Origin: Patescibacteria group bacterium | GTDB lineage: Bacteria > Patescibacteriota > Patescibacteriia > UBA1558 > UBA10009 | Assembly: GCA_018818425.1 (NCBI GenBank) | Contig: JAHISB010000021.1 | Location: 1 to 43,348 of the forward strand | DNA: 43,348 nucleotides | Reading direction: 5' to 3' | Shown: positions 17,745 through 36,533 of the stretch, piece after piece | How the letters are laid out: every line of letters begins with the position of its first letter | How positions within the stretch are numbered: the first letter of the stretch is position 1 | Notes under the pieces: generated by a model | Told to the model about the DNA's origin: nothing | Databases searched by the model: none | What the model saw: the letters and a program-made list of their open reading frames with translations, nothing else | Program-made: the position numbers and the translations under genes

Positions 17745-17831
17745 AAAAAAGGCCACTTGCCTAAGTTATAGACAAAATGACCCTATATTTTATTATAAAT
17801 TAATCTTAAACAATTATTAAAATATGGTCAA
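17745..17831 (-). promoter_or_regulatory. Promoter-leader hairpin element, copy 1 (before M23 gene)
   Basis: Minus strand: TTGACC (17826-17831), 17-nt spacer, TAAGAT (17803-17808), with a second TATAAT at 17792-17797. The transcribed part is AGGGTCATTTTGTCT, a short loop, AGGCAAGTGGCC and six U. GTCT pairs with AGGC, and TCA with the TGG-CC side. A perfect DnaA-box TTATCCACA lies just upstream (17840-17848). The leader ends about 75 nt before the M23 start. Confidence 0.7.
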
Positions 17832-18946: not shown

Positions 18947-19022
18947 AAAAAAGGCCACCTGCCTAAATTATAGACAAAATGACCCTATATTTTATTATAG
19001 ATGATTATGAAAATTGTGTCAA
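18947..19022 (-). promoter_or_regulatory. Promoter-leader hairpin element, copy 2 (no gene behind it)
   Basis: Minus strand: TTGACA (19017-19022), a 17-nt spacer and TATAAT (18994-18999). Then comes AGGGTCATTTTGTCT, a 7-nt loop, AGGCAGGTGGCC and six or more U. It points into the 3' end of the plus-strand transglutaminase-like gene and no minus-strand gene follows. Downstream an AAAGGAGAGCAG-ATG start opens only three codons. This copy supports the idea that the element can be a self-contained RNA unit. Confidence 0.7.
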
Positions 19023-22231: not shown

Positions 22232-22257
22232 ATTTGCTTATTTTGTTACATTTTCAT

Positions 22258-22387
22258 AAAAAAAGGCCACTCGCCTAATCCCCGATTCCCCCGACTTCCC
22301 CGATTGAATCGGGGATCGGGGGCGGGGAAGACATAATGACCCTTGTATTTACAATTTTATTTTAGATGATTCTAAAGATTGTGTCAA
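22258..22387 (-). promoter_or_regulatory. Promoter-leader hairpin element, copy 3 (before recQ)
   Basis: Minus strand: TTGACA (22382-22387), a 17-nt spacer and TAAAAT (22359-22364). Then come AAGGGTCATTATGTCT, a GC-rich palindromic insert in the apical loop (22278-22329), AGGCGAGTGGCC and seven U. The paired TGTCT/AGGCG keeps the stem with G-U pairs. The 22388-22496 stretch upstream shows nothing else. Confidence 0.72.
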
Positions 22388-22496
22388 ATTTAAAAGAACC
22401 GAACAGCTAAAAGGCTATTTGACTCTGATGTTTTTATAATTACACGTCTAGTTGTCCCATCAAAACTTCCTTATAAATAAATTATTTAACAATTAA

Positions 22497-23118: not shown

Positions 23119-24837
23119 TCATGCTTCAATGCCTGATTTTATAAACAAATCGCGGTATGGTTCATTTACTATCCGATTTTCGGTTAAACCAAATTTTTTT
23201 GCGAAAGCAATATTTTCTTCTATTGCTGATTCCCTTTCCCAAGTACTGTTAACAATTTCCTCTATCTCCAAAAAATATCCTAAATTTTCAATTTTATCCA
23301 AAGTTATGGTTTTTTTATCGAATAAAAATTTTTTACGAATTTTGCGGAAATCAGCAACTTTTTTAAAATCCAATAATTCCAACAAATATTCCATCTTATC
23401 TATGGAAGTATTGATTAAAATATCAATTTCTGATTTCCAATATTGTTCTTTAGTTAACATTTCATCGGTTGAAGGTCCTTTATATGTTAGTTCCAATTGA
23501 CCGTTTCTTTCTCTTATTCGCAAACATTCTTTCGTAGCAATAAAATCTCTATGAGGAGCGGTAAAATAAATGTCATGTTCACAAATTTCTTCTTTAAAAA
23601 CTGCTCCATAGTCATATAATATTTTTATAATATTTTCGACTTCATCGTCATTTATTCTTAATTTTATTTCAACTTCTTCTCCCTTCTTTTCTTCATGCAC
23701 CGAGGAATAATAATATCTGCCCTTAATGGTATTAATGACACCAAAATCAATTTTTTTGATTTTTATATTCTTTTCTATCAATTTTTTAAATTCATCAAAT
23801 TTAACAAAATTATTTCCCTGATCACCAAGAAAATTAATATAGTATAGATGCCATATCTTTGATAAAAAAGTTGAATGGTTTGGGTCTTCTATATCTATAA
23901 TTATCAATTGTTTGCTGGTTTCGGACAGCCAACTAATAAGTCTAGATTGCTCTTCCTCTGGTATGTGATGAAGCGAATTTTTAAAAATAACCAGATCAAA
24001 TTTTTTCTTAAAAGGAAAATCTAAAATGTTATGATTGGTAAAAATTACATTGCTGTTGCAGTGTTTATTTGTTAAAAGTGATAAAATTTTCAAAGAAATA
24101 TCGTTGGCTACACATAGCTTTGACTGAAATTTTTTTTTCAGAGAAAAAATCAAAGTATCATCGCCCGAGCATACATCAAGGATTGATTCAGGTTTGCCAT
24201 TGGTTAATTCATATATCTTTTTTCTTATTCTATAAGAAGATATCCTACCAATAAATTTGACAATATATTTATTAATAATATATGATAGAAAATATTTTCT
24301 AGCGCTGTCTATTTCATAATAAGGAAATCTAGGATCGCTGTTAACAACAATTTTTTTGGAGAGTTCTAAAATTTTTTTATTTTGATATAACATCTTTTCT
24401 GGAACATCGTTTGTATATATAAACTTTATATTATCAACTTGCGGAGTAACTTTTTCTCTTGATAATACAATAAAGGCAACTCCTCTATGAAGGATTATAT
24501 GATTATTAAATTTAAAATGATTATTGATAATTGCTACCGGCCGTAAGCCGTCGACTGTAATTCCTGTTTCTTTTAAAGCTATGCGATTTGCGGCATCTAT
24601 AATATTTTCACCGTTTTTCAAATAACCCCCGACCAGCTCCCAGCCGATATTTTTATTAAGATCCCTTAATAAAATAAATTCTCTTCTTTCATTATAAATA
24701 CTGATAATTACGAAATTATAACTGCTTTTACATAATCTAAAGAAATCAAAGCTTACCTCTTCTTCGTAGTTTAACTCTGGAAGGTTATAGATATCCTTGT
24801 ATATTTCGATAATTTCGCTATTTGTAAATTTTTTCAT
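23119..24837 (-). CDS. Three-domain fusion: NUDIX + SAM methyltransferase + CYTH
   Basis: 572 residues in one unbroken frame. Residues about 38-140 form a NUDIX domain whose box starts at G71 with E77, R85 and E90. It carries I86 and K89 where the canonical REUxEE has Glu, so metal binding may be weakened. Residues about 200-365 are a class I methyltransferase (motif I ILDVCSGDD at 219-227, then LHHIP at 289-293). Residues about 386-560 are a CYTH domain with ExExK (E388, E390, K392), R440/R442, K453, D514 and E524/E526. CYTH enzymes act on triphosphates such as ThTP, PPPi or ATP. The combination suggests a nucleotide or triphosphate metabolite repair or modification enzyme. The substrate is unknown. 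Transcribed from copy 4 of the repeated element. Confidence 0.82.
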   Translation of the reverse strand: MKKFTNSEIIEIYKDIYNLPELNYEEEVSFDFFRLCKSSYNFVIISIYNERREFILLRDLNKNIGWELVGGYLKNGENIIDAANRIALKETGITVDGLRPVAIINNHFKFNNHIILHRGVAFIVLSREKVTPQVDNIKFIYTNDVPEKMLYQNKKILELSKKIVVNSDPRFPYYEIDSARKYFLSYIINKYIVKFIGRISSYRIRKKIYELTNGKPESILDVCSGDDTLIFSLKKKFQSKLCVANDISLKILSLLTNKHCNSNVIFTNHNILDFPFKKKFDLVIFKNSLHHIPEEEQSRLISWLSETSKQLIIIDIEDPNHSTFLSKIWHLYYINFLGDQGNNFVKFDEFKKLIEKNIKIKKIDFGVINTIKGRYYYSSVHEEKKGEEVEIKLRINDDEVENIIKILYDYGAVFKEEICEHDIYFTAPHRDFIATKECLRIRERNGQLELTYKGPSTDEMLTKEQYWKSEIDILINTSIDKMEYLLELLDFKKVADFRKIRKKFLFDKKTITLDKIENLGYFLEIEEIVNSTWERESAIEENIAFAKKFGLTENRIVNEPYRDLFIKSGIEA

Positions 24838-24900
24838 AACCTTATTAAAAATCGTTTATAAAGGGTTAATTTTTCTCATAATATCTCTAGTTTAATAAAA

Positions 24901-25016
24901 TAATAAAAGGCCACTCGCCTAATCCCCGATTCCCCCGACTGGATCGGGGGCGGGGAAGGCGCAATGACCCTTATTTATTGTACAGTTATTTTAAACTATC
25001 TTCAAAATTCTGTCAA
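24901..25016 (-). promoter_or_regulatory. Promoter-leader hairpin element, copy 4 (before NUDIX fusion)
   Basis: Minus strand: TTGACA (25011-25016), a 17-nt spacer and TAAAAT (24988-24993). Then come AAGGGTCATTGCGCCT, a GC-rich palindromic insert (about 24921-24957), AGGCGAGTGGCC and TTTTATTA. CGCCT/AGGCG makes a full Watson-Crick stem. The promoter part is almost identical to copy 5 and differs from the others, which fits a recent local duplication. Confidence 0.72.
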
Positions 25017-25199
25017 ATTTAAATCGCTAATATAATGCTAATTATCGCTAATAATCTCCCGCCTACGCCGAGGCTTCCTCCTCCGCTAAAGCTACGGCGG
25101 ACAGGCCGGCGGGCAGGCACTAATAAGTCGCGAATTCCCATATAATATGTTATTAGCGAATTAGCGACATATTCGTGAATATTCGCGATGATTCGCATT
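25017..25199. repeat. ATTAGCGAT-type repeats with inserted GC-rich palindrome
   Basis: The flanks consist of ATTAGCGAT, ATTCGCGA and ATTCGTGAAT words. In the middle (about 25058-25118) lies a GC-rich block with CCGCCTACGCCGAGG and GCTACGGCGGACAGGC. Its relatives occur at 36626-36656. An 83-codon frame crosses the region but its Arg-rich content is explained by the repeats, so I do not call it a gene. Confidence 0.6.
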
Positions 25200-25250
25200 C
25201 TATCGGCGATATGGCATGGTGAAGATGAAGGCCGAGCCCTTGCCTTTGCC
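25200..25250 (-). pseudogene. Duplicated 3' tail of the histidine kinase gene
   Basis: Seventeen codons reading GKGKGSAFIFTMPYRR and stop. The true kinase gene at 26933 ends GKGKGSAFIFTLPIH. About 31 of 32 bases match over the shared part (25219-25250 against 26946-26977). The fragment starts directly after the stop codon of the 208-aa gene and has no start of its own. It marks one side of a duplication that brackets the RHS toxin cargo. Confidence 0.8.
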
Positions 25251-25877
25251 TTAACTTTTAGCTTTATCACTTTTTCGTTTTCTAACTAATTTAAACATTA
25301 GAATGATACCAATAATTATAATGATTCCGATACCTGTATAAATTAACAAAGGAATAAAATATACACTATTAGGACAAAATGCTGGTGGTTGATAGCAAGC
25401 AGTAGAAAATGAACAACTATCTTTATATGTATGGATGTAAACAGTCCAATCACCTGTTCTATCTTTGGATATAAATTGACTACAAGAGCATATTTTAGAA
25501 TTTATTACTTCTGTTTCTTTTAAAAAACTTGAGTACTCATCTGCTGATTGCTTGTTAATATAAATATAGTTGGGTAAATCAGTCTGATATTGTTTTATAA
25601 ATCTTAAAACTATCTCTTTATCCTCGTCCGACAATTTCAGATCGGGGCAAACCTCATCAATCGTTGTTCTATTTACTGATTCAATATCAATCGAATGTTC
25701 ACGGTATGGTTGTGAATAATTTTTATAAACATTGCACTCGTCTTCTCCAACACTAATTTGGATGGATGGACGAGCCATTTTACAGGCATAAAGTTTATCT
25801 ACATTTATTAATAATAAAAAAGGAATAATTAATAATATAAAAATTGTTTTTTTTATATATTTCTTTGTATAATTCAT
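25251..25877 (-). CDS. Cys-rich membrane-anchored protein; candidate immunity partner
   Basis: 208 residues: an N-terminal signal or membrane helix (about 10-28), an extracytoplasmic region with nine Cys, including CSCS and SCSFSTAC, and a C-terminal membrane helix (about 172-194) with a basic cytoplasmic tail. It follows the RHS/HExxH protein by 2 nt. That position is typical of an immunity protein. A membrane-tethered domain on the outer face would suit protection from a secreted peptidase. No family is recognised, so the role is inferred from context only. Confidence 0.6.
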   Translation of the reverse strand: MNYTKKYIKKTIFILLIIPFLLLINVDKLYACKMARPSIQISVGEDECNVYKNYSQPYREHSIDIESVNRTTIDEVCPDLKLSDEDKEIVLRFIKQYQTDLPNYIYINKQSADEYSSFLKETEVINSKICSCSQFISKDRTGDWTVYIHTYKDSCSFSTACYQPPAFCPNSVYFIPLLIYTGIGIIIIIGIILMFKLVRKRKSDKAKS

Positions 25878-25879
25878 AA

Positions 25880-26701
25880 TTAAAATATAAAACTAAAAGT
25901 TAACATCTCTGCTAGGAATCCATATATTTTATCCCTTTTGAAATACTTTTCACCATCAACGAAATTTGCTTTCATATAATTTTTAATATAATCTGTTAAA
26001 CCATACTCATCAACATTGGGATTTAAATCAAACCACCAATCAGCAACATCATTGGCCCAATGACCTAGCTCATGAATTAAAGTGCTAGCAACCGCCTGAA
26101 CACCGTCAATAATAGTTTCAAAATTTATCAATACATTATTTGTTAATGAATTATAAGCGCCATATAAATCATTTCCTTCACTGTCCTTCATTTCTTTTTT
26201 AAAAAACACATCCGGACCTTGATTATTATCTTCCAACACTGTTACAATGTCCACATCAAACTTATTAAAATAATCTATAACTTCTTGATTATCTTTAACA
26301 GTGTTCTGTAAATTAGTTAAAGCCTCTAAAAACTGCTGTTTCTGCTCCTCGGTCATATCATTATTAAAATGAATCTGAAACTCGCCCGTTGGGTCAATGT
26401 AGATTACAGGATTATTTCTAGTATAACTATACGGATTTAGGTTTTGAGGATTAGAAAGAAATTGCTCTAAATTCTGCCCAGTCTGTTGTTTTAGTTTTTG
26501 AGGATTGGCAAGATTATTAAGAACCGGGTCTGGTTGAATAAACTGGCCAGCGCTGGGGCTATACTGACGAGCATCAAAATTATACAGGCCTGACTCAAAG
26601 TCTTTTTCCTGGTCGGTGAAACGATAAGAGGGATCAAGAGCAAAAACAATGTTAGTTGAAAAGAACAAAATGATTAGTGATAAAATTAACACTTTTCTCA
26701 T
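25880..26701 (-). CDS. Mini-RHS secreted protein with HExxH toxin-like C-terminus
   Basis: 273 residues. A signal peptide (about 1-21) is followed by an RHS-repeat-associated core (YRFTDQEKDFESGLYNF, then RQYSPSAGQF, LNPYSYTRNNP and DPTGEF, ending at 108). This core is the cap that precedes toxin tips in RHS proteins, but the long YD-repeat shell is missing. The C-terminal domain carries HELGH (H210, E211, H214) and looks like a zinc metallopeptidase. The first 108 residues match those of the second RHS protein at 35481 with 19 differences by my count, while the rest is unrelated. Copy 5 of the promoter-leader element drives it, and a candidate immunity gene follows. Confidence 0.8.
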   Translation of the reverse strand: MRKVLILSLIILFFSTNIVFALDPSYRFTDQEKDFESGLYNFDARQYSPSAGQFIQPDPVLNNLANPQKLKQQTGQNLEQFLSNPQNLNPYSYTRNNPVIYIDPTGEFQIHFNNDMTEEQKQQFLEALTNLQNTVKDNQEVIDYFNKFDVDIVTVLEDNNQGPDVFFKKEMKDSEGNDLYGAYNSLTNNVLINFETIIDGVQAVASTLIHELGHWANDVADWWFDLNPNVDEYGLTDYIKNYMKANFVDGEKYFKRDKIYGFLAEMLTFSFIF

Positions 26702-26725
26702 ATAATTATGCCTTAATTTGTTAAA

Positions 26726-26811
26726 TAATAAAAGGCCACTCGCCTAAAATTAGACGTAATGACCCTTGTTTATTGTATAGTTATCTTAAACTATCCTCAA
26801 AATTCTGTCAA
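26726..26811 (-). promoter_or_regulatory. Promoter-leader hairpin element, copy 5 (before RHS gene A)
   Basis: Minus strand: TTGACA (26806-26811), a 17-nt spacer and TAAGAT (26783-26788), then CAAGGGTCATTACGTCT, loop AATTTT, AGGCGAGTGGCC and TTTTATTA. CGTCT/AGGCG pairs with one G-U. This is the shortest copy, without the GC-rich loop insert. Leader and gene start are about 25 nt apart. Confidence 0.72.
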
Positions 26812-26932
26812 ATCATTAAACGCTGACAAACACGGACCGCGCTGACTTTCACGAACCGCTGACAAAAATATTGGTGTTATTAGTGAATTCGTGACATATT
26901 AGTGAGTATATTAGTGAATTATTAGCGATATA
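26812..26932. repeat. GCTGAC-type and ATTAGTGA-type repeats after the kinase gene
   Basis: 26819-26870 holds CGCTGAC variants (ACGCTGACAAACACGG, GCGCTGACTTTCACG, ACCGCTGACAAAAATATTGG). 26870-26935 holds ATTAGTGAATT and ATTAGCGATAT words that run up to the kinase stop codon. The first half is closely matched at 36540-36600. Confidence 0.6.
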
Positions 26933-29659
26933 TTAGTGTATAGGCAGAGTGAAGATGAAGGCCGAGCCCTTGCCCTTGCCTGCTGATTCGGCCCAGATTT
27001 TGCCGCCGTGGGCCTCAATAATATTTTTAGCAATATACAAGCCCAGGCCTGAACCGCCGGTATGAATCTGGGCAATGCCTTCGCCGCGGACAAATTTTTT
27101 AAACAAACTATTTACCTCCCCTTCCTTGATGCCCACGCCGGTATCTTTAACCATCACTTTAACCTGATTTTCACCGGCTTCCACAAATACATCTATCCGG
27201 CCTTCGGGCGTATATTTAATGGAATTGTCTATCATGTTAACAACAACGTCCTTGATTTTATCCCTGTCTAAAGAAATATGGGGCAGTAATTTAGCCGGCA
27301 GATGCAAATGCAATTCTAAATTTTTCTTATCGGCATCCGGCTTGAATTCGGTTATGACTTCTTCCAATAATTTTATCAGGTCTATTTCTTGAATTACCAG
27401 CTCAAACCTTCCGGATTCAATTCTGGAAACATTCAGGAAGATATTGACCAGCCGGGTCAGCCGGTCGGTGTTTTGCGAAAGATTTTCTATAATAGTTTTT
27501 AAACCGGACGGCACCGGGCCATAATCGCCTTCTAAAATCATGGAAAGATAACCCTTGATGCCGGTTAAAGGCGTGCGCAATTGATGAGAAGCAATGGATA
27601 AAAACTCCGACTTGGCTTTATCCAGCTGCTGCAGCCGGACATTGGCCTCTTTAAGTTCGATATTGGCCTGTTGAATTTTTTGATACAAAGTTAAATTGCG
27701 GAAAACAATCCCCACCTGATTGGCTAAAGACTTCATCATTTCTTTTTCCACTTTGGTGACTTCAACGGCCGGCTTGGCTAAAACAAAATCAATCACGCCG
27801 ATTATATTTTCTTCTGTATAAACCGGCACGGCTAAAACCGCTTTAGCCCCCAACGCTTCCTGTATTTTCTCTGATAGCTGTTCGGGTATGGCCGGCTTAA
27901 AAAAGTCATGCATCCTTTCGCCCGAAATAATTTCCTTTTTAACAATAGCTTGCATGGCTAAATTGCCCGGCTCGGCTAAAGAAACTGAATATTTTTTAAC
28001 GTCTTGAGGCACCAGGGCAATTACTTTTTGTATTTGCGGCGTGTTAGAAATGGCGCCAATGCTAACGGTATTAGTTTTAGGATTTACAAAATTTAAAATG
28101 CCTCCTATATAGCCCAGTTCGGTATTAATTCCGTCGGCAATGGTCTGCATAACTTTTTGAAAATCCAGCGAACGGGTAATAACGTTGATAAGCCCCTGCA
28201 AAGCCACCAGATAGCGGTTGCGCTCCTCTAAATCGGCGGTGCGCTGTTTTACCAAATATTCCAGATTCAGCTTGGCGGTCTGGACTTCTTCAAAAAGTTT
28301 TGATTTTTCCAGGGCCGTGGCGATTTGCGGCGCTAAAATTTCAAAAAAGTCAATTTCGTCCTGCATAAAAGGACTGCCGGAAAGCTTTTGACCGATGCAC
28401 AACACTGCCGTTACTTTGTTTTTGGCCATAATCGGCATTACCAGACCCAGCTTTTGTTCGTCCAGTTTATTTTGAAGCTGGTCAATTTCTTCTTTTTCTT
28501 CTTCTGTTTTTAATTCCGCCTTTTGGCGCCCCAACTCCTCGGTGATAATCATCTCTTTTTTTTCCAGCAACCGCTTAATCACCAAATCCTCATTAAAAAA
28601 CTTTTCTTTCCCGTCAGTCCGGCAAAAGTATTGCTCGCCATGATTAATGCAAAGATACAACCTGGCCTGCCTGACCTTTATTTCTTTCTGCAAACTATCC
28701 TCCATTCGTTCTGTCAATTTATGCAAATCCAGTTCACTGGCAATAATCCCGCCGATATCTCGTAAAACCTCCTGATAGTCAATCTTGCCCCTGTAAAAAA
28801 AGCTGTCTGATAATCTGGCCAGCAGTTTTTTTAAAGGATCCAAACCGACAACTATTATCAAAGAAACCAACAAAGTAACAAACACCTCTCCCCTGCCTTC
28901 TAAAAGCTGACCGGTGGTAAAGGTGATAAAAGTAAAAGTAAGAGCGACTATGAGAATTAAGAGAAAATACAAAATGCTTCGGGAAATGACTAAGCGGATG
29001 TCCATGAGACGGTATTTTGCAATTGCATATGTTATTGCAACTACATAAAAAATTACAAAAAAATTACCAAAAGGGTATGTATTTATCAATTGCGGGAAAA
29101 AATTTGTTGTACCACCGCCAAAACCAAATAATGCTGTTAATAATATATATATTACTTGTTGCTTTTTTAAACCAGTTAAAGATTTATATTTCTTTAACAT
29201 TAAATAAACCGAAAATATGACTGAAATAGAAAAAAATAGTGGAAAAATTAAATATAAAGGACCTGGATCAATCCAAAAATTAAAATTAAATTTCGGAGAT
29301 ACTCCTCCTTTAAATAATGGGGTAAAACTTAAAATTGCTAAAACAAAACCAAAAAGGAAAAAGGTTTTAAAAATGTTCTTTTTAATTTTATACAAATCTA
29401 GTAAAACTAATGTAAAAAGAAGAAAAAATATTGGAATAAAAATTCCACTAACATCTAATAAATATTGAAATTTTAATGCAACACTTTCATCACTAGATTC
29501 AACAACTCCTAATAAACCCAGGGCCCATAAAGATGCGCATATACTCACAAAAAACCAACTTCTATTCAATAAAGATTTTGGATTTTCCCAGATTACAAAA
29601 ATTCCTATAATCAAACTAAGAATTAAAGTCACTAACGATGATAAACCAAAAATAGACAT
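26933..29659 (-). CDS. Large sensor histidine kinase: 7TM + two GAF + HisKA/HATPase
   Basis: 908 residues from the ATG at 29659, chosen because a longer frame would overlap the HAD gene. The N-terminal 230 residues form a HisKA_7TM-type membrane sensor. One or two more helices follow near 240-290, then two GAF domains (about 330-470 and 500-650). The phospho-acceptor His692 lies in ASHQLRTPL, the N box is NMIDNSIKYTP near 808, and the G boxes are DTGVGIK (about 839) and GGSGLGL (about 868). No response regulator is encoded nearby. The gene starts 1 nt after the HAD gene's stop. Its 3' end has been duplicated at 25200-25250. Confidence 0.9.
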   Translation of the reverse strand: MSIFGLSSLVTLILSLIIGIFVIWENPKSLLNRSWFFVSICASLWALGLLGVVESSDESVALKFQYLLDVSGIFIPIFFLLFTLVLLDLYKIKKNIFKTFFLFGFVLAILSFTPLFKGGVSPKFNFNFWIDPGPLYLIFPLFFSISVIFSVYLMLKKYKSLTGLKKQQVIYILLTALFGFGGGTTNFFPQLINTYPFGNFFVIFYVVAITYAIAKYRLMDIRLVISRSILYFLLILIVALTFTFITFTTGQLLEGRGEVFVTLLVSLIIVVGLDPLKKLLARLSDSFFYRGKIDYQEVLRDIGGIIASELDLHKLTERMEDSLQKEIKVRQARLYLCINHGEQYFCRTDGKEKFFNEDLVIKRLLEKKEMIITEELGRQKAELKTEEEKEEIDQLQNKLDEQKLGLVMPIMAKNKVTAVLCIGQKLSGSPFMQDEIDFFEILAPQIATALEKSKLFEEVQTAKLNLEYLVKQRTADLEERNRYLVALQGLINVITRSLDFQKVMQTIADGINTELGYIGGILNFVNPKTNTVSIGAISNTPQIQKVIALVPQDVKKYSVSLAEPGNLAMQAIVKKEIISGERMHDFFKPAIPEQLSEKIQEALGAKAVLAVPVYTEENIIGVIDFVLAKPAVEVTKVEKEMMKSLANQVGIVFRNLTLYQKIQQANIELKEANVRLQQLDKAKSEFLSIASHQLRTPLTGIKGYLSMILEGDYGPVPSGLKTIIENLSQNTDRLTRLVNIFLNVSRIESGRFELVIQEIDLIKLLEEVITEFKPDADKKNLELHLHLPAKLLPHISLDRDKIKDVVVNMIDNSIKYTPEGRIDVFVEAGENQVKVMVKDTGVGIKEGEVNSLFKKFVRGEGIAQIHTGGSGLGLYIAKNIIEAHGGKIWAESAGKGKGSAFIFTLPIH

Positions 29660-29660
29660 A

Positions 29661-30317
29661 TTATTTATGAAATATTTTAACCATCCATCCTTTTTGTTTT
29701 GCAATATTAAATAATTTTTTATTGGGATTCACTACAATCGGATTATCTGCCAATTCAAATAAATCATAATCTGAAATGTGATCTGAATAAGCGAAACTAC
29801 CCTTTAAAGATATTTTTTTTTCTTTTAAAAATTCTTTTATAAGATTTTTTTTATTCTCGCCATAAACAACTGAGCCAAAAATTTCACCTGTAAAAATACC
29901 ATTTTCAGACTTTAAATCTGTTGCAATTGCATAATCAAAACTAAAATATTTTCTTATAATCTCAACTAAAGGTAATAATGATGCAGAAACTAAAATAATT
30001 TTTCCATCTTTTTCTTTATGTAAATTAATTTCATTAATCGCATCTTTATAAAATTTTGATTTGATATCTTTAAAAAAATCATTTAATAAATCTATCGTAT
30101 ATAGCACGTTCCACCCCCTACAAATTCTAAAAGATATTTCTCTGATTTTTATTACATCTTTTACTAAATTTAATTTATATAAAATAAACCAAAAATAAAT
30201 CATCATCAAAAAAAATACACTAACTTTTTTTCTTTGAAAAAGGTATTTTACTAATAATTTCTGTGATTGTCCTTTTAATAAGGTATCATCAAGATCAAAA
30301 AAAACTACATATGACAT
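29661..30317 (-). CDS. HAD-superfamily (IB, SerB-like) phosphatase
   Basis: 218 residues. Motif I is FFDLDDTLLKG with D8 nucleophile and D10. Motif II is LVSASLLPL, and motif III/IV includes K near the GENKKNLIKEF segment and SDHISDYDLFELAD. This is the IB subclass that contains phosphoserine phosphatases and phospholipid-head-group phosphatases. Being between plsC and the kinase gene, and commonly paired with acyltransferases, it may act in lysophospholipid metabolism. It lies 6 nt after plsC. Confidence 0.85.
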   Translation of the reverse strand: MSYVVFFDLDDTLLKGQSQKLLVKYLFQRKKVSVFFLMMIYFWFILYKLNLVKDVIKIREISFRICRGWNVLYTIDLLNDFFKDIKSKFYKDAINEINLHKEKDGKIILVSASLLPLVEIIRKYFSFDYAIATDLKSENGIFTGEIFGSVVYGENKKNLIKEFLKEKKISLKGSFAYSDHISDYDLFELADNPIVVNPNKKLFNIAKQKGWMVKIFHK

Positions 30318-30323
30318 AAACCA

Positions 30324-30950
30324 CTAAAATTCATATTCCTCTCCACAAAGTAAACCAATTTTTTTCATTAAGTCTCTAGTCAATGATGCAACTTTATCCC
30401 TATCACCAATAATTTGTTTGTTATAATTATAATAAATTAATTGACCAAAATTGAGCTCACACTTTTTAAATTTAGGATACTTGTCGTGCCTAGACATAAT
30501 TTCAAATGTACCCTTAATACCAACTGGAATAATTGGGACTTTTGCATAAATTGCCAATTTTACTGCACCATTATAAGCTTTCCGTAGTTCACCATCCTTC
30601 GATCTTGTTCCTTCTGGGAATATGCCAATTACTTTACCGTTCTTTAAATAATTTAAAGCTTGGTTTACTGATTCGGATTTATCTTCTGCGCTTCTGTCAA
30701 CTTTTATCTGCTTTGTCAATTTTACCAGCCAAGCCCACTGCCATTTCCTAAAAAATACCTCACCAGCTAAAAAATAAATTCTTCTTGGGGTTACTGTATA
30801 TAAAGTTATAAAGTCAAAATAACTTTCATGATTAGAGGCGATTATAAAACTATCTTTCTTAGGAATATTCTCTAAGCCTTCTATATTTTTTACCCAAATT
30901 AATTTAATAATTGGTAATATAAATATTTTTAAAAATAAATAAAACATCAA
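30324..30950 (-). CDS. plsC: 1-acyl-sn-glycerol-3-phosphate acyltransferase (PlsC family)
   Basis: 208 residues. An N-terminal membrane-associated helix (about 4-20) is followed by NHESYFD (N40-D46; the NHx4D catalytic motif) and FPEGTRS at 111-117, the substrate-binding motif. It adds a second acyl chain to lysophosphatidic acid or a related lipid at the inner membrane face. The run is 7TM protein, plsC, HAD, kinase, with gaps of 26, 6 and 1 nt, so one transcript is likely. An acyl-CoA synthetase and a lipase-like hydrolase lie 6-8 kb away on the same strand. Confidence 0.88.
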   Translation of the reverse strand: MMFYLFLKIFILPIIKLIWVKNIEGLENIPKKDSFIIASNHESYFDFITLYTVTPRRIYFLAGEVFFRKWQWAWLVKLTKQIKVDRSAEDKSESVNQALNYLKNGKVIGIFPEGTRSKDGELRKAYNGAVKLAIYAKVPIIPVGIKGTFEIMSRHDKYPKFKKCELNFGQLIYYNYNKQIIGDRDKVASLTRDLMKKIGLLCGEEYEF

Positions 30951-30976
30951 ATTTTTTTCTAATAAATAAAAATTAT

Positions 30977-31651
30977 TTACAACCTTACTCTTACTTCCGG
31001 CAAAAATATCCCATAAGTAATTAAAATTGGATAAAGAAAAACAAAAATTTGACCGATCGGATACAGGCCGGTTAAAGCCATCACAAAATTGGTAATGCCG
31101 CCGCCAAAACCAATAATAACGGCTATGGCAATAAACAAAATTTGTTTTTTCTTAAAACCATTGGCTCTAGAATAATTTTTTAACAAAAGAAAAATTGAAA
31201 ACACAGTATAAAATAAAAAGTAGGTTAAATATAAATAAAATACAGGCATATTTACTTCTTCAAAATAGCCAAAATTTTCTAAATAGCGGAAACCTGTAAT
31301 TAAATGATTGGTAAAAAGGTTCAGATACAGCAAAATCAACGCTAAACTATAACCGACAATTAATAATGCTTTTCCCTCTTTCAACAAAAACTTTATGGTA
31401 AAATGAAAAAATAAAATGGGAATAAGGGTAGCGCCGGTGTATACAATCATTAAAGCAGTCATCACCGAGTTAGAATTATCTGTCATTATCGCCCATAAAT
31501 AGCCAACAGACCAGGTAGTTGCTGCTAAACATATTAAAAACCATAACCAATAAATAATTGATTTATGGTTTCGGCTTATAGTATAAATTCCTAAAGCCAA
31601 AGAAAAAACTAAAGTTAAAATAGTAGATACTTTTATTATAATTGACAGCAT
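30977..31651 (-). CDS. Orphan 7TM sensor protein (HisKA_7TM-like)
   Basis: 224 residues with seven hydrophobic helices and the same layout as the N-terminus of the large kinase. For example, GFGGGITNFVMALTGLYPIG matches the kinase's GFGGGTTNFFPQLINTYPFG. No kinase or other cytoplasmic domain follows: the frame ends after PEVRVRL. It may be a truncated kinase, a receptor that works with a separate protein, or an inhibitor by heterodimerisation. It is the first gene of the plsC-HAD-kinase unit. Confidence 0.7.
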   Translation of the reverse strand: MLSIIIKVSTILTLVFSLALGIYTISRNHKSIIYWLWFLICLAATTWSVGYLWAIMTDNSNSVMTALMIVYTGATLIPILFFHFTIKFLLKEGKALLIVGYSLALILLYLNLFTNHLITGFRYLENFGYFEEVNMPVFYLYLTYFLFYTVFSIFLLLKNYSRANGFKKKQILFIAIAVIIGFGGGITNFVMALTGLYPIGQIFVFLYPILITYGIFLPEVRVRL

Positions 31652-31740
31652 AATAAAATGCTTTTAAGGATTGGATATTTAACTTTCTCTCTTTTAAGTT
31701 TCTTAAGTATTTCTCTACTAAATTGTATAACAAATCAGCT
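31652..31740 (-). pseudogene. Fossil tail of a second 7TM gene
   Basis: The stretch before the 31651 start aligns to the end of the 227-aa 7TM gene and its downstream flank (33721-33845). Shared words include TTAAGAAACTTAAAAGAG and TTAAAAGCA.TTTA.TATG. In the frame of the 7TM gene it reads EILKKLKRE, against SLIFKKLKRGG. The rest of that gene is missing. No start or ribosome site is present. Confidence 0.65.
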
Positions 31741-31821
31741 GAAAAGACAATCGGTCGTATATCGTGTATCGCGAATCGTGTATCGTGTATCGTGCCGGCC
31801 AGCCTTTGGCTGATATCAAAA
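31741..31821. repeat. GTATCGTGTATCG tandem words
   Basis: 31756-31795 consists of near-tandem ATATCGTGTATCGCGAATCGTG-type words, the same family (opposite orientation) as at 9693-9783. No gene is seen. Confidence 0.6.
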
Positions 31822-31855
31822 TAAAAAAGCGGCTCGGTTCTTAATGAACAGAGCC
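31822..31855 (-). terminator. Terminator of the T9SS-domain gene
   Basis: Minus strand: GGCTC.GTTC pairs with GAAC.GAGCC (9 bp, one mismatch; 31831-31855) and is followed by GCTTTTTTATTTT. It lies 24 nt after the stop. Confidence 0.85.
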
Positions 31856-31878
31856 ACTGTGTAATCGTGTGATTGGCG

Positions 31879-32712
31879 CTATTTTATCAGCGCCATTTTG
31901 CCGTTGGCGTTGAAATCGCCGGCCTGCAGGCGATAGATGTAGGTGCCTGAAGCCAGATTTGAACCGTCAAAGGTTACTTCGTGAGTACCGGCTGTGCGCC
32001 AGCCGTTGACCAGCTCCGCCACCTGACAACCCAGTAGATCGTAAACCGTCAGCTTGACGATACCCGCCTTTACTAGATCAAAGGCGATGGTCGTGGTTGG
32101 GTTGAAGGGGTTGGGGTAGTTCTGGGAGAGGGAGTAGACTGTGGGGGGAACCTGCGAAGTTGGCGAAATGCCTAACGAGTTGTTATAGACAGTTATCACT
32201 GGTCCATAACACCTAACGGGACTGTATGGTTCTCCTTCATAGTAGAAGAAGAAGTCAGTTTGTACATTCAAACTGCACACAGCCACGTTGGAGGAATTTA
32301 CTCCGGCCAATAACTGAAAATCTATCCCTCCTCCGTCCGGCACCATTAGGTTTAATTCAATGCCACAGGAACCAGAGCTTAGTTCCACCACACTACTGGA
32401 AACCTGACCATCAATCAGAACGGAAAATCCACTAAGGTAAGTAGGATCGTTGAATGGGATTGTTCCATAATGCGTGCCGCTAGGAAAGGTGTTTATATTC
32501 GCGATCTCTCCCATATTTGCGAGCCTAAGCTCCAAATCTATCCCAGTATTATTTAGGATATAGAGATTACCACTTATACAAGCGGAGTCAGCAGGAATCT
32601 CTATGCTAAAATTATCCGACTGGAGCGTAACGGTTGGCGACTGTCCTAAAACCAAACCAGTACTAGCCATCATAACTACAATGGCTATTAGAAGACCTAA
32701 GGTCTTTTCCAT
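31879..32712 (-). CDS. Secreted protein with T9SS type A-like sorting domain
   Basis: 277 residues: a signal peptide (about 1-23), a beta-rich body without known motif, and a C-terminal domain (about 197-277). That domain opens with NYPNPFNPTTTI and continues LTVYDLLGCQVAELV...GTHEVTFDG...LASGTYIYRLQAG, ending in a KMALIK tail. It is the FlgD-Ig-like/Por secretion C-terminal domain known from Bacteroidetes, Ignavibacteria and relatives, where Type IX secretion exports such proteins. GGAGGAGGAG gives a strong ribosome site and GC content is higher than nearby. No T9SS gene is seen here. Transfer from an FCB-group donor is likely, and the protein may be simply secreted. Confidence 0.85.
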   Translation of the reverse strand: MEKTLGLLIAIVVMMASTGLVLGQSPTVTLQSDNFSIEIPADSACISGNLYILNNTGIDLELRLANMGEIANINTFPSGTHYGTIPFNDPTYLSGFSVLIDGQVSSSVVELSSGSCGIELNLMVPDGGGIDFQLLAGVNSSNVAVCSLNVQTDFFFYYEGEPYSPVRCYGPVITVYNNSLGISPTSQVPPTVYSLSQNYPNPFNPTTTIAFDLVKAGIVKLTVYDLLGCQVAELVNGWRTAGTHEVTFDGSNLASGTYIYRLQAGDFNANGKMALIK

Positions 32713-32806
32713 CTCCTCCTCCTTGGCACATATTGTGCCGATGATTTATTTTTTCTTCTTTTTTCTATAATTTTTTTAGATTTTTTAGAGAGCTTTTCTT
32801 ACTTAT

Positions 32807-32836
32807 ATATTATCCTGATTTTTTAAATTTTGTCAA
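32807..32836 (-). promoter_or_regulatory. Promoter of the T9SS-domain gene
   Basis: Minus strand: TTGACA (32831-32836) and TAATAT (32807-32812) with an 18-nt spacer, about 95 nt before the start codon. A small inverted repeat GGCACAtatTGTGCC (about 32735-32750) lies in the leader just before the ribosome site. Confidence 0.55.
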
Positions 32837-32888
32837 GTTGATAAATTGTTGATAAGAAATGTATGAATGACTAAAAGACGTTATATAA

Positions 32889-33719
32889 TTATTGAAAATG
32901 TTGAAGTTCAGAAACACAGCCAATCATATATAAATTGCCGTTGCTGTCAATGTAGGAAACAATATCGCTAAAACTATTTTCTATGATAAAATTGCCATCT
33001 ACTAGTGGAACTAATATCCCGTTTTGATATTCATGAATGCTTCTTACAAACAATCTATAACCCTCCCCCAAATAGTTACCAATAAAAGCAATTAAAACAT
33101 TGTCTTGATTGTATATAGGGAATGTATTGCCTTGAGTAAAACCAAAATAAGCACCAACGTAATTACCAACATCAGAAATGCCAGTAATACCCATCGTTGT
33201 TAAAATCTGCCCGGCATCGGTAAAAGCAAAAACAGTGTTGCCACTAGAGTCTTCAATGTATAAGGCATGGTTGTAATCATTATCAGTTATGTAGCAATGG
33301 TCAGGTTGTTGAGGCGGAGGACCGCCACTAGTATAAGAATAACATTGATAGCAATTTAACCACGGGCCATAATTAAAAGGAGGACCAATATCATAAGCAA
33401 ATCTCACCTGGCAAACACCACTATTACAGGCTCGTAATAATGATGTTACGGTGGGAACACTTTCGCCACAAGGACTACAATCATCTATAATAGTACAACT
33501 CTTATAACCGTAGCCGTAGCCACATATTCCAGTTTGTCCTGAGCCGGGATTCCAATACGGCGGATTGCATTCAGGATGAGTAATACAAGCAGTGCCCTCG
33601 CCGCCTACTTCAGCATAAATCTCTTTGGTGTTAATTAGAGAAAAATAAAGAAAGCCGGCTGTTATCAATATAATGCTGATTAAACTTGCTAATAATATCT
33701 TTGTTTTGTGTTTTTTCAT
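32889..33719 (-). CDS. Secreted Cys-rich protein, hypothetical
   Basis: 276 residues. An N-terminal hydrophobic segment (about 8-28) is followed by AEVGGEG, a plausible signal-peptidase site. The first half carries about twelve Cys in short spacings (CITHPECNPP, CGYGYGYKSCTIIDDCSPCG), implying a disulfide-bonded module. The second half (about 150-265) is beta-rich with IEDSSGNTVFAFTDAGQ and YIDSNGNLYMIG, which resemble short beta-strand repeats of phage-tail or intramolecular chaperone-like surface proteins. No family is recognised. It lies between the two 7TM-tail duplications with the T9SS-domain gene. Confidence 0.65.
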   Translation of the reverse strand: MKKHKTKILLASLISIILITAGFLYFSLINTKEIYAEVGGEGTACITHPECNPPYWNPGSGQTGICGYGYGYKSCTIIDDCSPCGESVPTVTSLLRACNSGVCQVRFAYDIGPPFNYGPWLNCYQCYSYTSGGPPPQQPDHCYITDNDYNHALYIEDSSGNTVFAFTDAGQILTTMGITGISDVGNYVGAYFGFTQGNTFPIYNQDNVLIAFIGNYLGEGYRLFVRSIHEYQNGILVPLVDGNFIIENSFSDIVSYIDSNGNLYMIGCVSELQHFQ

Positions 33720-33809
33720 AAATTTACTACTAATTTACGAATCGGTTACTAATATACTAATCAAGATTGTAATTGGCAACATACTAAAGTGCTTTTAATG
33801 ATTAAAAAC
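33720..33809 (-). pseudogene. Vestigial start of a second 7TM gene
   Basis: Right after the 227-aa 7TM gene an ATG (about 33782) begins MLPITILISILVTDS and stops. The intact 7TM gene at 31651 begins MLSIIIKVSTILTLVF, and the DNA before both starts is similar. So a tandem 7TM neighbour once began here and was cut off. Confidence 0.55.
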
Positions 33810-34493
33810 TTAACCTCCTCTTTTAAGTTTCTTAAAAATTAAACTCATAACATAGAAAATTGTAATTAAAGAAAAGTAAGGGCCCACCCAGATTAATCTA
33901 TAATTCCCCAAAAGTGGCACAATTAAATCAAAGGTAAAAGCAATAATAAATGAGATGGCAGTAATTATGATTAATTGTAATAAAATAAAACGTATAACTC
34001 CTTCACTCTTTTTAAATTTAGTTATCAGCATCTTATAAGCCAAAATTAAAAAACTGAAAAAATAAATGATATAAAGAACGTGGCCTAATAACTTCACATT
34101 AGCATCGTTCCCCCAAAAATAATGAGTTGCTTTTTCAACTAACAAAGTGGGGTGAAAAATTACAAAAGTAATTGTTAATAGAGGAAGAGTAATCAAAAGT
34201 AATTTATTTTCACTCACTGCAAACGACTTATAAGGAAAGTGGTTAGCAAAAAATAAAAAGGCAAATATTATTATCGCGCCGCCAAAATAATACAACCTTG
34301 CCCAAGCTATGGCTGTTTCCATATCTAAAGTCTTATTAAACATAGCTATGCCAAAGCTCCAAACAGCCACTCCAAAGGTGACTAAACTAAAAGAAACATT
34401 AATGGGGCTTTTTGCATTTTTCACTAACAAGGTTACACCTAAAAAGATATTGATTAAGGCCACAGCTATCAAAATAATATTTTTGATGTCCAT
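33810..34493 (-). CDS. Orphan 7TM sensor protein, second copy
   Basis: 227 residues with seven helices. The opening NIFLGVTLLVKNAKSPINVSF plus a WSFGIAMF block matches the layout of the kinase sensor and of the 31651 and 41982 copies. There is no cytoplasmic signalling domain: it ends KKLKRGG. It lies downstream of the RHS-B/DUF5063-like/143-aa membrane genes in the same direction, with gaps of about 34 nt, so it may be in their transcript. Confidence 0.7.
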   Translation of the reverse strand: MDIKNIILIAVALINIFLGVTLLVKNAKSPINVSFSLVTFGVAVWSFGIAMFNKTLDMETAIAWARLYYFGGAIIIFAFLFFANHFPYKSFAVSENKLLLITLPLLTITFVIFHPTLLVEKATHYFWGNDANVKLLGHVLYIIYFFSFLILAYKMLITKFKKSEGVIRFILLQLIIITAISFIIAFTFDLIVPLLGNYRLIWVGPYFSLITIFYVMSLIFKKLKRGG

Positions 34494-34527
34494 ATAGTTT
34501 TAATAACAAAAGCTAAATGCTAATATT

Positions 34528-34959
34528 TTATTTATACAAATCAAATATATATTTAATAATAAAAATATAAAAGATCACTGAAGTGATAACTGCCAAACTA
34601 ATAGCAATATACATTAATATTTTTTGTCTTTTTTTAAATTTAACTATATCTTGCTCGGTATTTTGATAATTAAGTTTCTGCCAAACCATAGCCCTGCCAT
34701 AAAGAACTAAATAAACAATAAAAGCCAAATAAAAAATATAAAATAAAGGATATAACACAGTTAAAACAGGATGATTGATTTTATCTGATGAATAATACGT
34801 CAAAAAAATGAAGGAGTATAATCCTAAATAAATAAAGGTAGCTGGCCATAATTTATTGCCAATGGTAAAAACCGGGGTGACAAAAAAAGCCAAGAGCGAC
34901 CAGTGCTGGACTATTTTGGGCAATTGCTGTTTATTGATTTTGAAAGAAGATAGTTTCAT
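34528..34959 (-). CDS. Small membrane protein, hypothetical
   Basis: 143 residues with about four hydrophobic helices (near 20-38, 41-55, 66-90 and 115-138) and a basic loop before the last one (KFKKRQKI). The first 15 residues are cytoplasmic and charged. Its position, 4 nt after the DUF5063-like gene, would allow a role as a second immunity protein or membrane partner of the RHS-B system. No family is recognised. Confidence 0.6.
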   Translation of the reverse strand: MKLSSFKINKQQLPKIVQHWSLLAFFVTPVFTIGNKLWPATFIYLGLYSFIFLTYYSSDKINHPVLTVLYPLFYIFYLAFIVYLVLYGRAMVWQKLNYQNTEQDIVKFKKRQKILMYIAISLAVITSVIFYIFIIKYIFDLYK

Positions 34960-34963
34960 AAAA

Positions 34964-35476
34964 TTAATATGTAGTAATTATATTATATATTGCCTTCATA
35001 GCATTAACGGCTGTCATGCCCCAATTCGTATTGTAAACTCCGAATCGCCAATGCCAAACTGCATCAATCATACTTGATTCATTGCCTTTTAAATAAACCA
35101 CTAAGCCATTTTTTAAATCCTTATATATATCAGCAATATCTATGGATAAAGTGGAACCGACCATTTTGCCACCTTTTACAGAATCATATATAAACCAATA
35201 ATAATTATATTTCCCAAAAATATTAGCGATTTCCTTTTGAATTTTTATATAATAATCCTGACTTATTGCTACCTTTAAGGGTTGCTCACCAACAGAGGAA
35301 ATATTAGGCAATAAAAATCCGTAGTGAATCAAATCCATTAATAATTCTAGACTTTTATGCAAAAAGTTCAGTTGATTGACACTTTGATTATTTTCAACTA
35401 GATCACAAAAAATTTTAACAGTTTCAATGAATTTTTTAATATTATCATCTTTAATTAATTTTTTATCATCTGACAT
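34964..35476 (-). CDS. DUF5063-like protein; candidate immunity protein of RHS-B
   Basis: 170 residues from the ATG at 35476, five bases after the RHS-B stop codon; an upstream ATG at 35509 would overlap RHS-B by 29 nt. The N-terminal FIETVKIFCDLVENN and following helical LHKSLELLMDL segment resemble DUF5063 proteins, which are often encoded behind polymorphic toxins. It has no signal peptide, so it should stay in the cytoplasm. That fits neutralising a toxin acting on a cytoplasmic target. The family call is from pattern memory, not a search. Confidence 0.6.
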   Translation of the reverse strand: MSDDKKLIKDDNIKKFIETVKIFCDLVENNQSVNQLNFLHKSLELLMDLIHYGFLLPNISSVGEQPLKVAISQDYYIKIQKEIANIFGKYNYYWFIYDSVKGGKMVGSTLSIDIADIYKDLKNGLVVYLKGNESSMIDAVWHWRFGVYNTNWGMTAVNAMKAIYNIITTY

Positions 35477-35480
35477 ATTA

Positions 35481-36356
35481 TTAACTTCTACTTTTAAAAA
35501 TATCCCCAATTATATTTAACTGTTCCTGATTTCTTAATAAATCATTTTTCCAATGCTCAATCAGACCTTTTTGATATTCTTTAGAAAAGTCGGCAAAATT
35601 TTCCGCACCTCTAAAAGGATTTTGTAATTTTTCTATATGACTTCTAACATTCTCTTCTAAACTTTTTATTGCTTTTTGCAGTTCATTATCGCTTTTTAAA
35701 CTATAATCCTTAAGAAATTTTGTATGTTTTAATCCTCCTTGGGCCGACTCATATGCATTTTCAGCACTCTTGATTATCGAATTTATTTCATTCCAACTGA
35801 CTTTGAAAGCTTTAATAATCCTGTTCATTTTATACATTCCAATCAAATTAGCTGTTGACTTCACAAATCTCTTAAACAAACCTCCAGTGCCAGCAGGCAG
35901 TATTGGCAAAAGCCCGATGGTATCAGCAGCCAGCGCTGCGGCGTTGCCCCAAGATGAATTCTTTTGATAGTCAGTTAAACTTTCATTAAAGAAAAAAATG
36001 TCTGTTGTTACATCGGTTACTATCGGAGCTGCAAACTCCCCCGTCGGATCAACATAATTAACAGGATTATTTTTGGTATAACTGTAAGGATTCAAATTCT
36101 GCGGGTCCATCAAGAACTGTTCTAAATCCTGTCCAGTTTGCTGTTTTAGTTTTTGAGGGTCAGTTAAGTTATTAAGCACCGGGTCTGGTTGAATGAATTG
36201 ACCCGTGTTAGGGCTATACTGACGAGCATCAAAATTATACAGACCCGACTCAAAGTCTTTTTCCTGGTCGGTGAAACGGTAACTTGGATTAAAGGCCAAA
36301 ACAGTGTTAGTTGTAAAAAACAAAAGAACGATTGATAGAATTAACGCTTTTCTCAT
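35481..36356 (-). CDS. Mini-RHS secreted protein with variable toxin-like C-terminus
   Basis: 291 residues. The signal peptide and RHS core (1-108, ending DPTGEF) match RHS-A closely, then the sequence changes completely. The C-terminal part has a hydrophobic hairpin (about 130-160, including PILPAGTGG) and a charged helical end with GGLKHTKFLKDY and NPFRGAENFADF, which resembles toxin tips of polymorphic toxins. I cannot name its activity. The immunity candidate follows after 4 nt. Copy 6 of the promoter-leader element drives it. Confidence 0.78.
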   Translation of the reverse strand: MRKALILSIVLLFFTTNTVLAFNPSYRFTDQEKDFESGLYNFDARQYSPNTGQFIQPDPVLNNLTDPQKLKQQTGQDLEQFLMDPQNLNPYSYTKNNPVNYVDPTGEFAAPIVTDVTTDIFFFNESLTDYQKNSSWGNAAALAADTIGLLPILPAGTGGLFKRFVKSTANLIGMYKMNRIIKAFKVSWNEINSIIKSAENAYESAQGGLKHTKFLKDYSLKSDNELQKAIKSLEENVRSHIEKLQNPFRGAENFADFSKEYQKGLIEHWKNDLLRNQEQLNIIGDIFKSRS

Positions 36357-36418
36357 AGTATTATGGATTAATGTTATAAGATTGCTTGTCTCATATAATT
36401 ATGCCTTATTTTGTTAAA
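36357..36418 (-). promoter_or_regulatory. Leader of RHS-B with a vestigial upstream start
   Basis: The sequence ATAATTATATGAG that surrounds the start of RHS-A is also present here (about 36388-36400), but the frame reads MRQAIL and stops. The working start lies 36 nt further on. The short frame is either a fossil of the ancestral start or an upstream ORF. Confidence 0.5.
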
Positions 36419-36533
36419 TAATAAAAGGCCACTCGCCTGATCCCCAATTCCCCCGACTGGATCGGGCGTGGGGAAGGCGCAATGACCCTTATATTTATAA
36501 TTTTATTGTAGATAATTCTGAAAATTGTGTCAA
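36419..36533 (-). promoter_or_regulatory. Promoter-leader hairpin element, copy 6 (before RHS gene B)
   Basis: Minus strand: TTGACA (36528-36533), a 17-nt spacer and TACAAT (36505-36510). Then come AAGGGTCATTGCGCCT, a GC-rich palindromic loop insert (about 36440-36476), AGGCGAGTGGCC and TTTTATTA. CGCCT/AGGCG is fully paired. Confidence 0.72.

What the first reader, a model, noticed from the sequence alone, without database searches (positions are those of the whole stretch)
25880..36356. Two mini-RHS proteins with a common core and switched toxin tips
The proteins at 25880 and 35481 share a signal peptide and RHS core (19 differences in 108 residues by eye) and diverge abruptly after DPTGEF. 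One tip is an HExxH peptidase-like domain, the other an unknown helical domain. The long YD-repeat shell of normal RHS toxins is missing: a signal peptide leads directly into the cap. A pared-down secreted polymorphic toxin in a presumed CPR cell is unusual and could act on host or neighbours.
Basis: partly seen in the sequence, partly recalled or inferred. Interest (0 to 1): 0.8.

Follow-up and report, generated by a model that had tools for sequence, protein, structure and literature searches.

The report
Shell-less secreted RHS toxins, swappable tips
Two small genes (and a third elsewhere in the same tiny bacterial genome) each join an export signal and only the last ~87 residues of the normally giant RHS toxin casing to a different, exchangeable toxin-like tip, and related bacteria keep the same design with matching protective genes, so it looks like a real slimmed-down line of bacterial weapons rather than broken fragments.

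Summary
Window genes A (26701-25880, -) and B (36356-35481, -) share a signal peptide and an 87-residue RHS core (19 differences in 108 residues; mature-core dN 0.09, dS 2.0) and lose all similarity after DPTGEF. They are not broken 3' ends. Each has its own promoter region. A third copy with a CHAP tip lies on contig C37. Eight such genes with the signal joined directly to the core occur in four genera of the window's family, and their cores form their own lineage. A second form, with 58-121 extra residues, recurs across the class, in one family usually just upstream of a full-length RHS gene.

Their tips are drawn from the pool used by full-length RHS genes, and similar tips are followed by similar downstream genes (odds ratio 211), as in toxin/immunity pairs. 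Tip B's toxin-like part occurs on other RHS cores, including a Leptospira RHS-HINT protein; tip A occurs on another core in another family. The retained core is the aspartyl-protease plug of the RHS shell, both aspartates intact.

Best reading: Sec-exported, shell-less polymorphic toxins, many acting on cell envelopes with membrane-anchored immunity. Export, cleavage and toxicity are inferred. New variant of a known kind.

The parts
25880..26701 (-). Mini-RHS A (273 aa): signal peptide + RHS plug/core + HExxH tip
26639..26701 (-). Signal peptide of A (residues 1-21, MRKVLILSLIILFFSTNIVFA)
   Evidence: hydropathy/cleavage heuristic; not SignalP
26378..26638 (-). RHS core/plug of A (residues 22-108), aspartates D58 and D103
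   Evidence: TIGR03696 E 6.7e-16; Asp pair conserved
25883..26377 (-). Tip A: zincin-like HELGHWAND domain; relative on another RHS core in G204 (29-32% identity)
25251..25877 (-). Putative immunity of A: 208 aa, signal peptide, Cys-rich exported part, C-terminal TM
   Evidence: position and topology only
35481..36356 (-). Mini-RHS B (291 aa): signal peptide + RHS plug/core + helical tip
36294..36356 (-). Signal peptide of B (residues 1-21)
   Evidence: heuristic
36033..36293 (-). RHS core/plug of B (residues 22-108)
   Evidence: TIGR03696 E 1.9e-16
35817..36032 (-). Tip B linker (residues 109-180), 70% identical to a mini-RHS of G003 that ends in a different toxin part
35487..35801 (-). Tip B toxin-like helical domain (residues ~186-290), 41% identical to tips of G001 and G008 orphans, 31% to a Leptospira RHS-HINT toxin C-terminus
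34964..35476 (-). Putative immunity of B: 170 aa cytosolic DUF5063 protein, 4 nt after the stop of B
   Evidence: PF16702 E 2.7e-28; assignment by position only
26730..26811 (-). Promoter-like TTGACA...TACAAT and 5' hairpin with T-run before A
36421..36533 (-). Homologous promoter/hairpin leader before B, with a nested GC-rich hairpin and a 6-codon upstream ORF
24898..25251 (-). Direct-repeat bracket of the A module: copy of the upstream kinase 3' end plus leader, matching 26981-26723

Best explanation
A and B (and the CHAP-tipped third copy on C37) are Sec-exported, shell-less RHS polymorphic toxins. SHOWN by sequence: signal-like N-terminus, the ~87-residue C-terminal plug of RHS proteins with both protease aspartates, a switched tip, a tightly coupled downstream gene, family-wide conservation, and a tip/downstream-gene pool shared with full-length RHS genes. 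INFERRED: after export the plug cuts itself after the D-P-x-G motif, or simply serves as a fixed connector, and frees the tip at or outside the surface of the producer; the tip acts on neighbouring cells or the host; the downstream protein protects the producer. Many tips of this form act on envelopes (CHAP, M15 peptidase, alpha/beta hydrolase, zincin-like) and need no shell or membrane crossing; their immunity proteins are membrane-anchored. The minority with cytosolic immunity, B among them, must cross a target membrane in an unknown way. New tips arrive by recombination at the core.
For: Family-wide SP+core genes in 4 of 5 genomes. SP+core genes cluster on the core tree (2 changes against 7.7 shuffled, 0 of 500), and the f5 minis form a clade apart from f5 full-length cores. 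Purifying selection on the core and a GC drop at the tips. Asp pair in 21 of 21 minis, corresponding to the autocleaving C-terminal plug of Rhs1 (PMC8636562) and matching solved RHS/TcC structures by profile. Tip similarity predicts downstream-gene similarity: 21 of 23 similar downstream pairs have similar tips, OR 211, p 1.7e-25; for example a G008 mini tip is 88% identical to a G028 full-length tip with 65% identical downstream genes. CHAP x7, M15 x1, alpha/beta hydrolase x1 among 22 minis, all nine followed by a TM-containing protein. Anchored downstream genes: 14/22 minis, 4/15 full-length (p 0.045), 10/41 full-length plus orphans (p 0.003). The heuristic calls no new signal peptide in the core ORFs sampled from the wider phylum and other phyla.
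Against: No experiment. Signal peptides were called by a hydropathy heuristic, not SignalP. No evidence the plug cleaves without its shell. B's DUF5063 partner is unlike the downstream genes of B's tip relatives, and DUF5063 genes elsewhere can sit in housekeeping-like places. Tip A's and tip B's activities are unknown: no Pfam toxin match, no PDB fold match for tip B. Fisher tests ignore shared ancestry.
Confidence: 0.72

Rival explanations
1. Archive of tips: the minis are orphan rhs-CT modules, kept as donors for recombination into the full-length RHS gene and for their immunity genes, as in enterobacterial rhs loci; the signal peptide is incidental.
For: Tips are shared between minis and full-length genes. 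Classic orphans without signal peptides also lie in these genomes. Orphan modules are a known phenomenon (PMC3150448).
Against: Described orphans mostly lack translation starts; these have start, signal peptide and leader kept in four genera, purifying selection on the core and a lineage of their own.
Confidence: 0.13
2. Wall-opening helper: the envelope-hydrolase minis loosen the producer's or target's wall so that the large RHS protein can leave or enter, as EssH does for the staphylococcal type VIIb system; the anchored partner restrains them.
For: In family f5 the mini and its anchored partner lie directly upstream of the full-length RHS gene, about 30-50 nt apart in G017, G025 and G027. 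CHAP or M15 tips there. EssH precedent (PMC13059805).
Against: [quoted passage not shown] G030 has a CHAP mini and no full-length gene beside it. Tips and partners swap like toxin/immunity pairs. The plug would have no purpose.
Confidence: 0.1
3. Broken 3' ends of longer RHS genes or assembly artefacts.
For: RHS cores do break assemblies here: C23 and C37 both end inside RHS genes.
Against: A and B sit inside one contig with leaders upstream; the same form recurs in four genera; dN/dS about 0.05.
Confidence: 0.03

Closest known systems
Rhs/YD-repeat polymorphic toxins (e.g. Photorhabdus Rhs1, TcC, WapA)
   Same: Rhs_assc_core domain with the aspartyl-protease plug, DPxG boundary, variable C-terminal tip, downstream immunity-like gene
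   Different: No YD-repeat shell and no N-terminal plug; signal peptide joined directly to the C-terminal plug
Orphan rhs-CT/rhsI and cdiA-CT modules (PMC3150448)
   Same: Short piece of core, tip and downstream gene; tips shared with full-length genes
   Different: Described orphans mostly lack translation starts; these carry start, signal peptide and leader, conserved across genera
Small secreted polymorphic toxins such as Neisseria MafB (PMC4287609) and PrsW-linked toxins (PMC3482391)
   Same: Short signal-bearing or processed N-terminal part carrying exchangeable tips with immunity (MafB compared from its abstract and general knowledge)
   Different: Different N-terminal domain; here it is the RHS plug itself
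EssH, CHAP hydrolase of the type VIIb system (PMC13059805)
   Same: Exported CHAP enzyme encoded with a secretion route for large toxins (f5 minis only)
   Different: EssH has no RHS core, and the paper's abstract does not describe tip switching

Membership tests
RHS polymorphic toxins | Rhs_assc_core domain (TIGR03696) | tested here: met
   A 58.6 bits, B 60.3 bits, cut-off 32.5
RHS polymorphic toxins | YD-repeat shell before the core | tested here: not met
   21-residue signal then core; no YD sequence upstream
RHS polymorphic toxins | Catalytic Asp pair of the C-terminal plug | tested here: met
   D58 and D103 in 21 of 21 minis; motif role from PMC8636562
RHS polymorphic toxins | Autocleavage releasing the tip | not testable with these tools
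   needs protein work
Polymorphic toxin systems | Same N-terminal part with unrelated tips, same tip on unrelated cores | tested here: met
   A, B and C37 tips unrelated; tip B and tip A relatives on other cores
Polymorphic toxin systems | Cognate immunity gene downstream | tested here: met
   For the set: tip and downstream-gene similarity linked, OR 211. For A and B individually only position and topology; B's partner does not match those of its tip relatives
Polymorphic toxin systems | Tip is toxic, immunity neutralises | not testable with these tools
   needs expression tests
[quoted passage not shown]
   Own start, signal peptide and leader; no full-length rhs in the window

The most novel reading that the evidence does not exclude
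The RHS C-terminal plug works without its shell as a free-standing self-cleaving release module for Sec-exported toxins, and in part of this lineage a wall-cutting mini-RHS and a full-length RHS are expressed together as a two-stage weapon in which the small one opens the envelope for the large one.
Probability: 0.15. Interest if true: 0.8.

Novelty: new variant of a known kind. Interest (0 to 1): 0.57.

Why it matters
The RHS shell is thought to be what packages and protects the toxin, and the plug is known only as part of it. A lineage that keeps the plug with its protease residues but discards the shell makes it directly testable what each part is for. It also shows that very small, probably host-dependent bacteria carry a diversified set of exported toxins with matched immunity, many aimed at cell envelopes, which bears on how such cells deal with hosts and rivals.

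Tried and rejected
Assembly breakage or 3' fragments: rejected. Leader hairpin as a mini-RHS-specific regulator: rejected, it also precedes unrelated genes of the contig and is absent before the family f1 relatives; no Rfam match. Trans-completion of a full-length shell by the minis: not favoured, since full-length genes of f5 keep their own core. DUF5063 as a general immunity family: inconclusive; on plasmids it occurs in housekeeping-like places and once beside barstar and SMI1 genes. Tip A on plasmids: no match. Structures: whole-chain confidence low (pLDDT 63 and 69); Foldseek gives only short core matches to Rhs structures with E above 0.1 and no match for tip B. Literature searches found no description of signal-peptide-plus-plug RHS toxins, in an open-licence library only.

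Full report
OBSERVATION. The window is the whole of contig C46 of a 1.23 Mb draft genome of 54 contigs, 94.5% complete. They differ at 19 of the first 108 residues. Their mature cores show dN 0.089 and dS 1.99, so both have been kept under strong purifying selection for a long time. GC falls from 0.41 in the cores to 0.30 and 0.335 in the tips and 0.28 in the downstream genes, and the tips have no real similarity to each other. The shared part is the Rhs_assc_core domain. The shared stretch begins ~240 nt upstream of the start codons, in a promoter and hairpin leader.

NOT FRAGMENTS. There is no YD-repeat sequence upstream of either gene. The own genome has a third gene of the same form on C37 with a CHAP tip, and a separate full-length RHS gene (SpvB, FG-GAP, RHS repeats; 2309 aa, cut by the contig end) on C23. 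C37 also ends inside an RHS core. RHS genes therefore do break this assembly, but A and B lie well inside a contig.

THE FORM RECURS. Searches of relatives, class and phylum and a systematic reading of the loci gave 22 short RHS-core genes with a signal-like start. Eight have the signal joined directly to the core, all in the window's own family (4 of 5 genomes: G000 three, G003 three, G001 and G004 one each); one has a 20-residue spacer; thirteen have 58-121 extra residues, in several families of the class. The same heuristic calls no new signal peptide in the core ORFs sampled from the wider phylum or from named bacteria of other phyla. On a core tree the eight direct-junction genes need 2 changes against 7.7 for shuffled labels (0 of 500 as low). 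In family f5 the minis form a clade (95/83) apart from the full-length cores of the same genomes. With 84 columns the tree is coarse.

TIPS AND PARTNERS. Pfam finds CHAP in seven mini tips, an M15/VanY peptidase in one and an alpha/beta hydrolase in one; all nine are followed by a protein with a TM segment. Full-length tips include one M15 peptidase, also with an anchored partner, and an RNase. Overall 14 of 22 minis are followed by an anchored protein, against 4 of 15 full-length genes (p 0.045) and 10 of 41 full-length plus orphan genes (p 0.003); shared ancestry is not corrected for. Tip similarity and downstream-gene similarity go together strongly: 21 pairs share both, 134 the tip only, 2 the downstream gene only, 2693 neither. 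The same tip and partner occur on minis and on full-length genes: G008 mini and G028 full-length, tips 88%, partners 65%; G027 mini and G008 full-length, 68% and 50%. The C37 mini of this genome shares its CHAP tip and partner with G025 (62% and 38%).

TIP A has HELGHWAND and a relative (29-32%) in another family, G204, on another RHS core; two 84-residue proteins with an N-terminal anchor follow it there. In the window the follower is a 208-residue Cys-rich protein with a signal peptide and a C-terminal TM. This agrees with an enzyme that acts outside the cytosol. TIP B is itself modular: residues 109-180 are 70% identical to a G003 mini that ends differently, and residues ~186-290 are 41% identical to tips of G001 and G008 orphans and 31% to the C-terminus of a Leptospira protein with an RHS core and a HINT domain. 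Its follower is a cytosolic DUF5063 protein starting 4 nt after B, but that is unlike the followers of B's tip relatives, so immunity is by position only.

THE CORE. In Rhs1 the C-terminal plug of the shell is an aspartyl protease, and the Asp of the second DP motif is needed for cleavage (PMC8636562). Both aspartates are present in all 21 alignable minis, and the core profile matches the corresponding part of solved RHS and TcC structures. The minis are thus signal + plug + tip. Whether the plug folds and cuts without the shell is unknown; the models are of low overall confidence.

MOVEMENT. The A module (mini plus partner) is bracketed by imperfect direct repeats: the 3' end of the upstream kinase gene and the leader occur again after the partner gene (26981-26723 and 25251-24898), which looks like the footprint of insertion or duplication by recombination.

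MECHANISM AND RIVALS. The simplest account is a Sec-exported, shell-less polymorphic toxin. For envelope-acting tips neither a shell nor a membrane-crossing step is needed, which would explain why the shell can be lost. Tips such as B, with cytosolic partners, are not explained by this and need an unknown entry route. The archive and wall-opening rivals remain open; the latter rests on f5 gene order and on the EssH precedent (PMC13059805).

NOVELTY. It uses known parts (RHS plug, known tip families, immunity-like partners) in an arrangement for which no description was found in an open-licence library, so it is a new variant of a known kind.

Noticed in passing
window 17747-17831, 18949-18985, 22256-22388, 24898-25016, 26730-26811, 36421-36533 (all -): A repeated 5' element: TTGACA/TANAAT-like promoter, then a hairpin starting GGGTCA and ending TGGCCTTTT, in some copies with a nested GC-rich hairpin inside. 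It precedes unrelated genes (RecQ-like helicase, M23-like lipoprotein, both mini-RHS, the Nudix fusion); no Rfam match.
   Followed up: partly
window 23119-24837 (-): One protein joins a NUDIX domain, a SAM methyltransferase and a CYTH domain, an unusual three-part fusion.
   Followed up: no
window 24880-24930 and 36380-36400 (-): Short upstream ORFs starting ATGAGA (MRKINPL*, MRQAIL*) follow the leader before the Nudix fusion gene and before B; they resemble leftover or duplicated mini-RHS starts.
   Followed up: partly
L080, L084, L085, L086, L078, L075 (family f5): A mini-RHS and its anchored partner lie directly upstream of a full-length SP-bearing RHS gene in most f5 genomes examined, a conserved gene order whose purpose is unknown.
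   Followed up: partly
L025 9143-10252 (C37): An ISL3-like transposase gene (named by eye) lies between the RHS tail with its followers and a degenerate RHS core fragment.
   Followed up: no
window 31879-32712 (-): A secreted protein with a Por_Secre_tail (type IX sorting) domain, unexpected in a very small genome.
   Followed up: no
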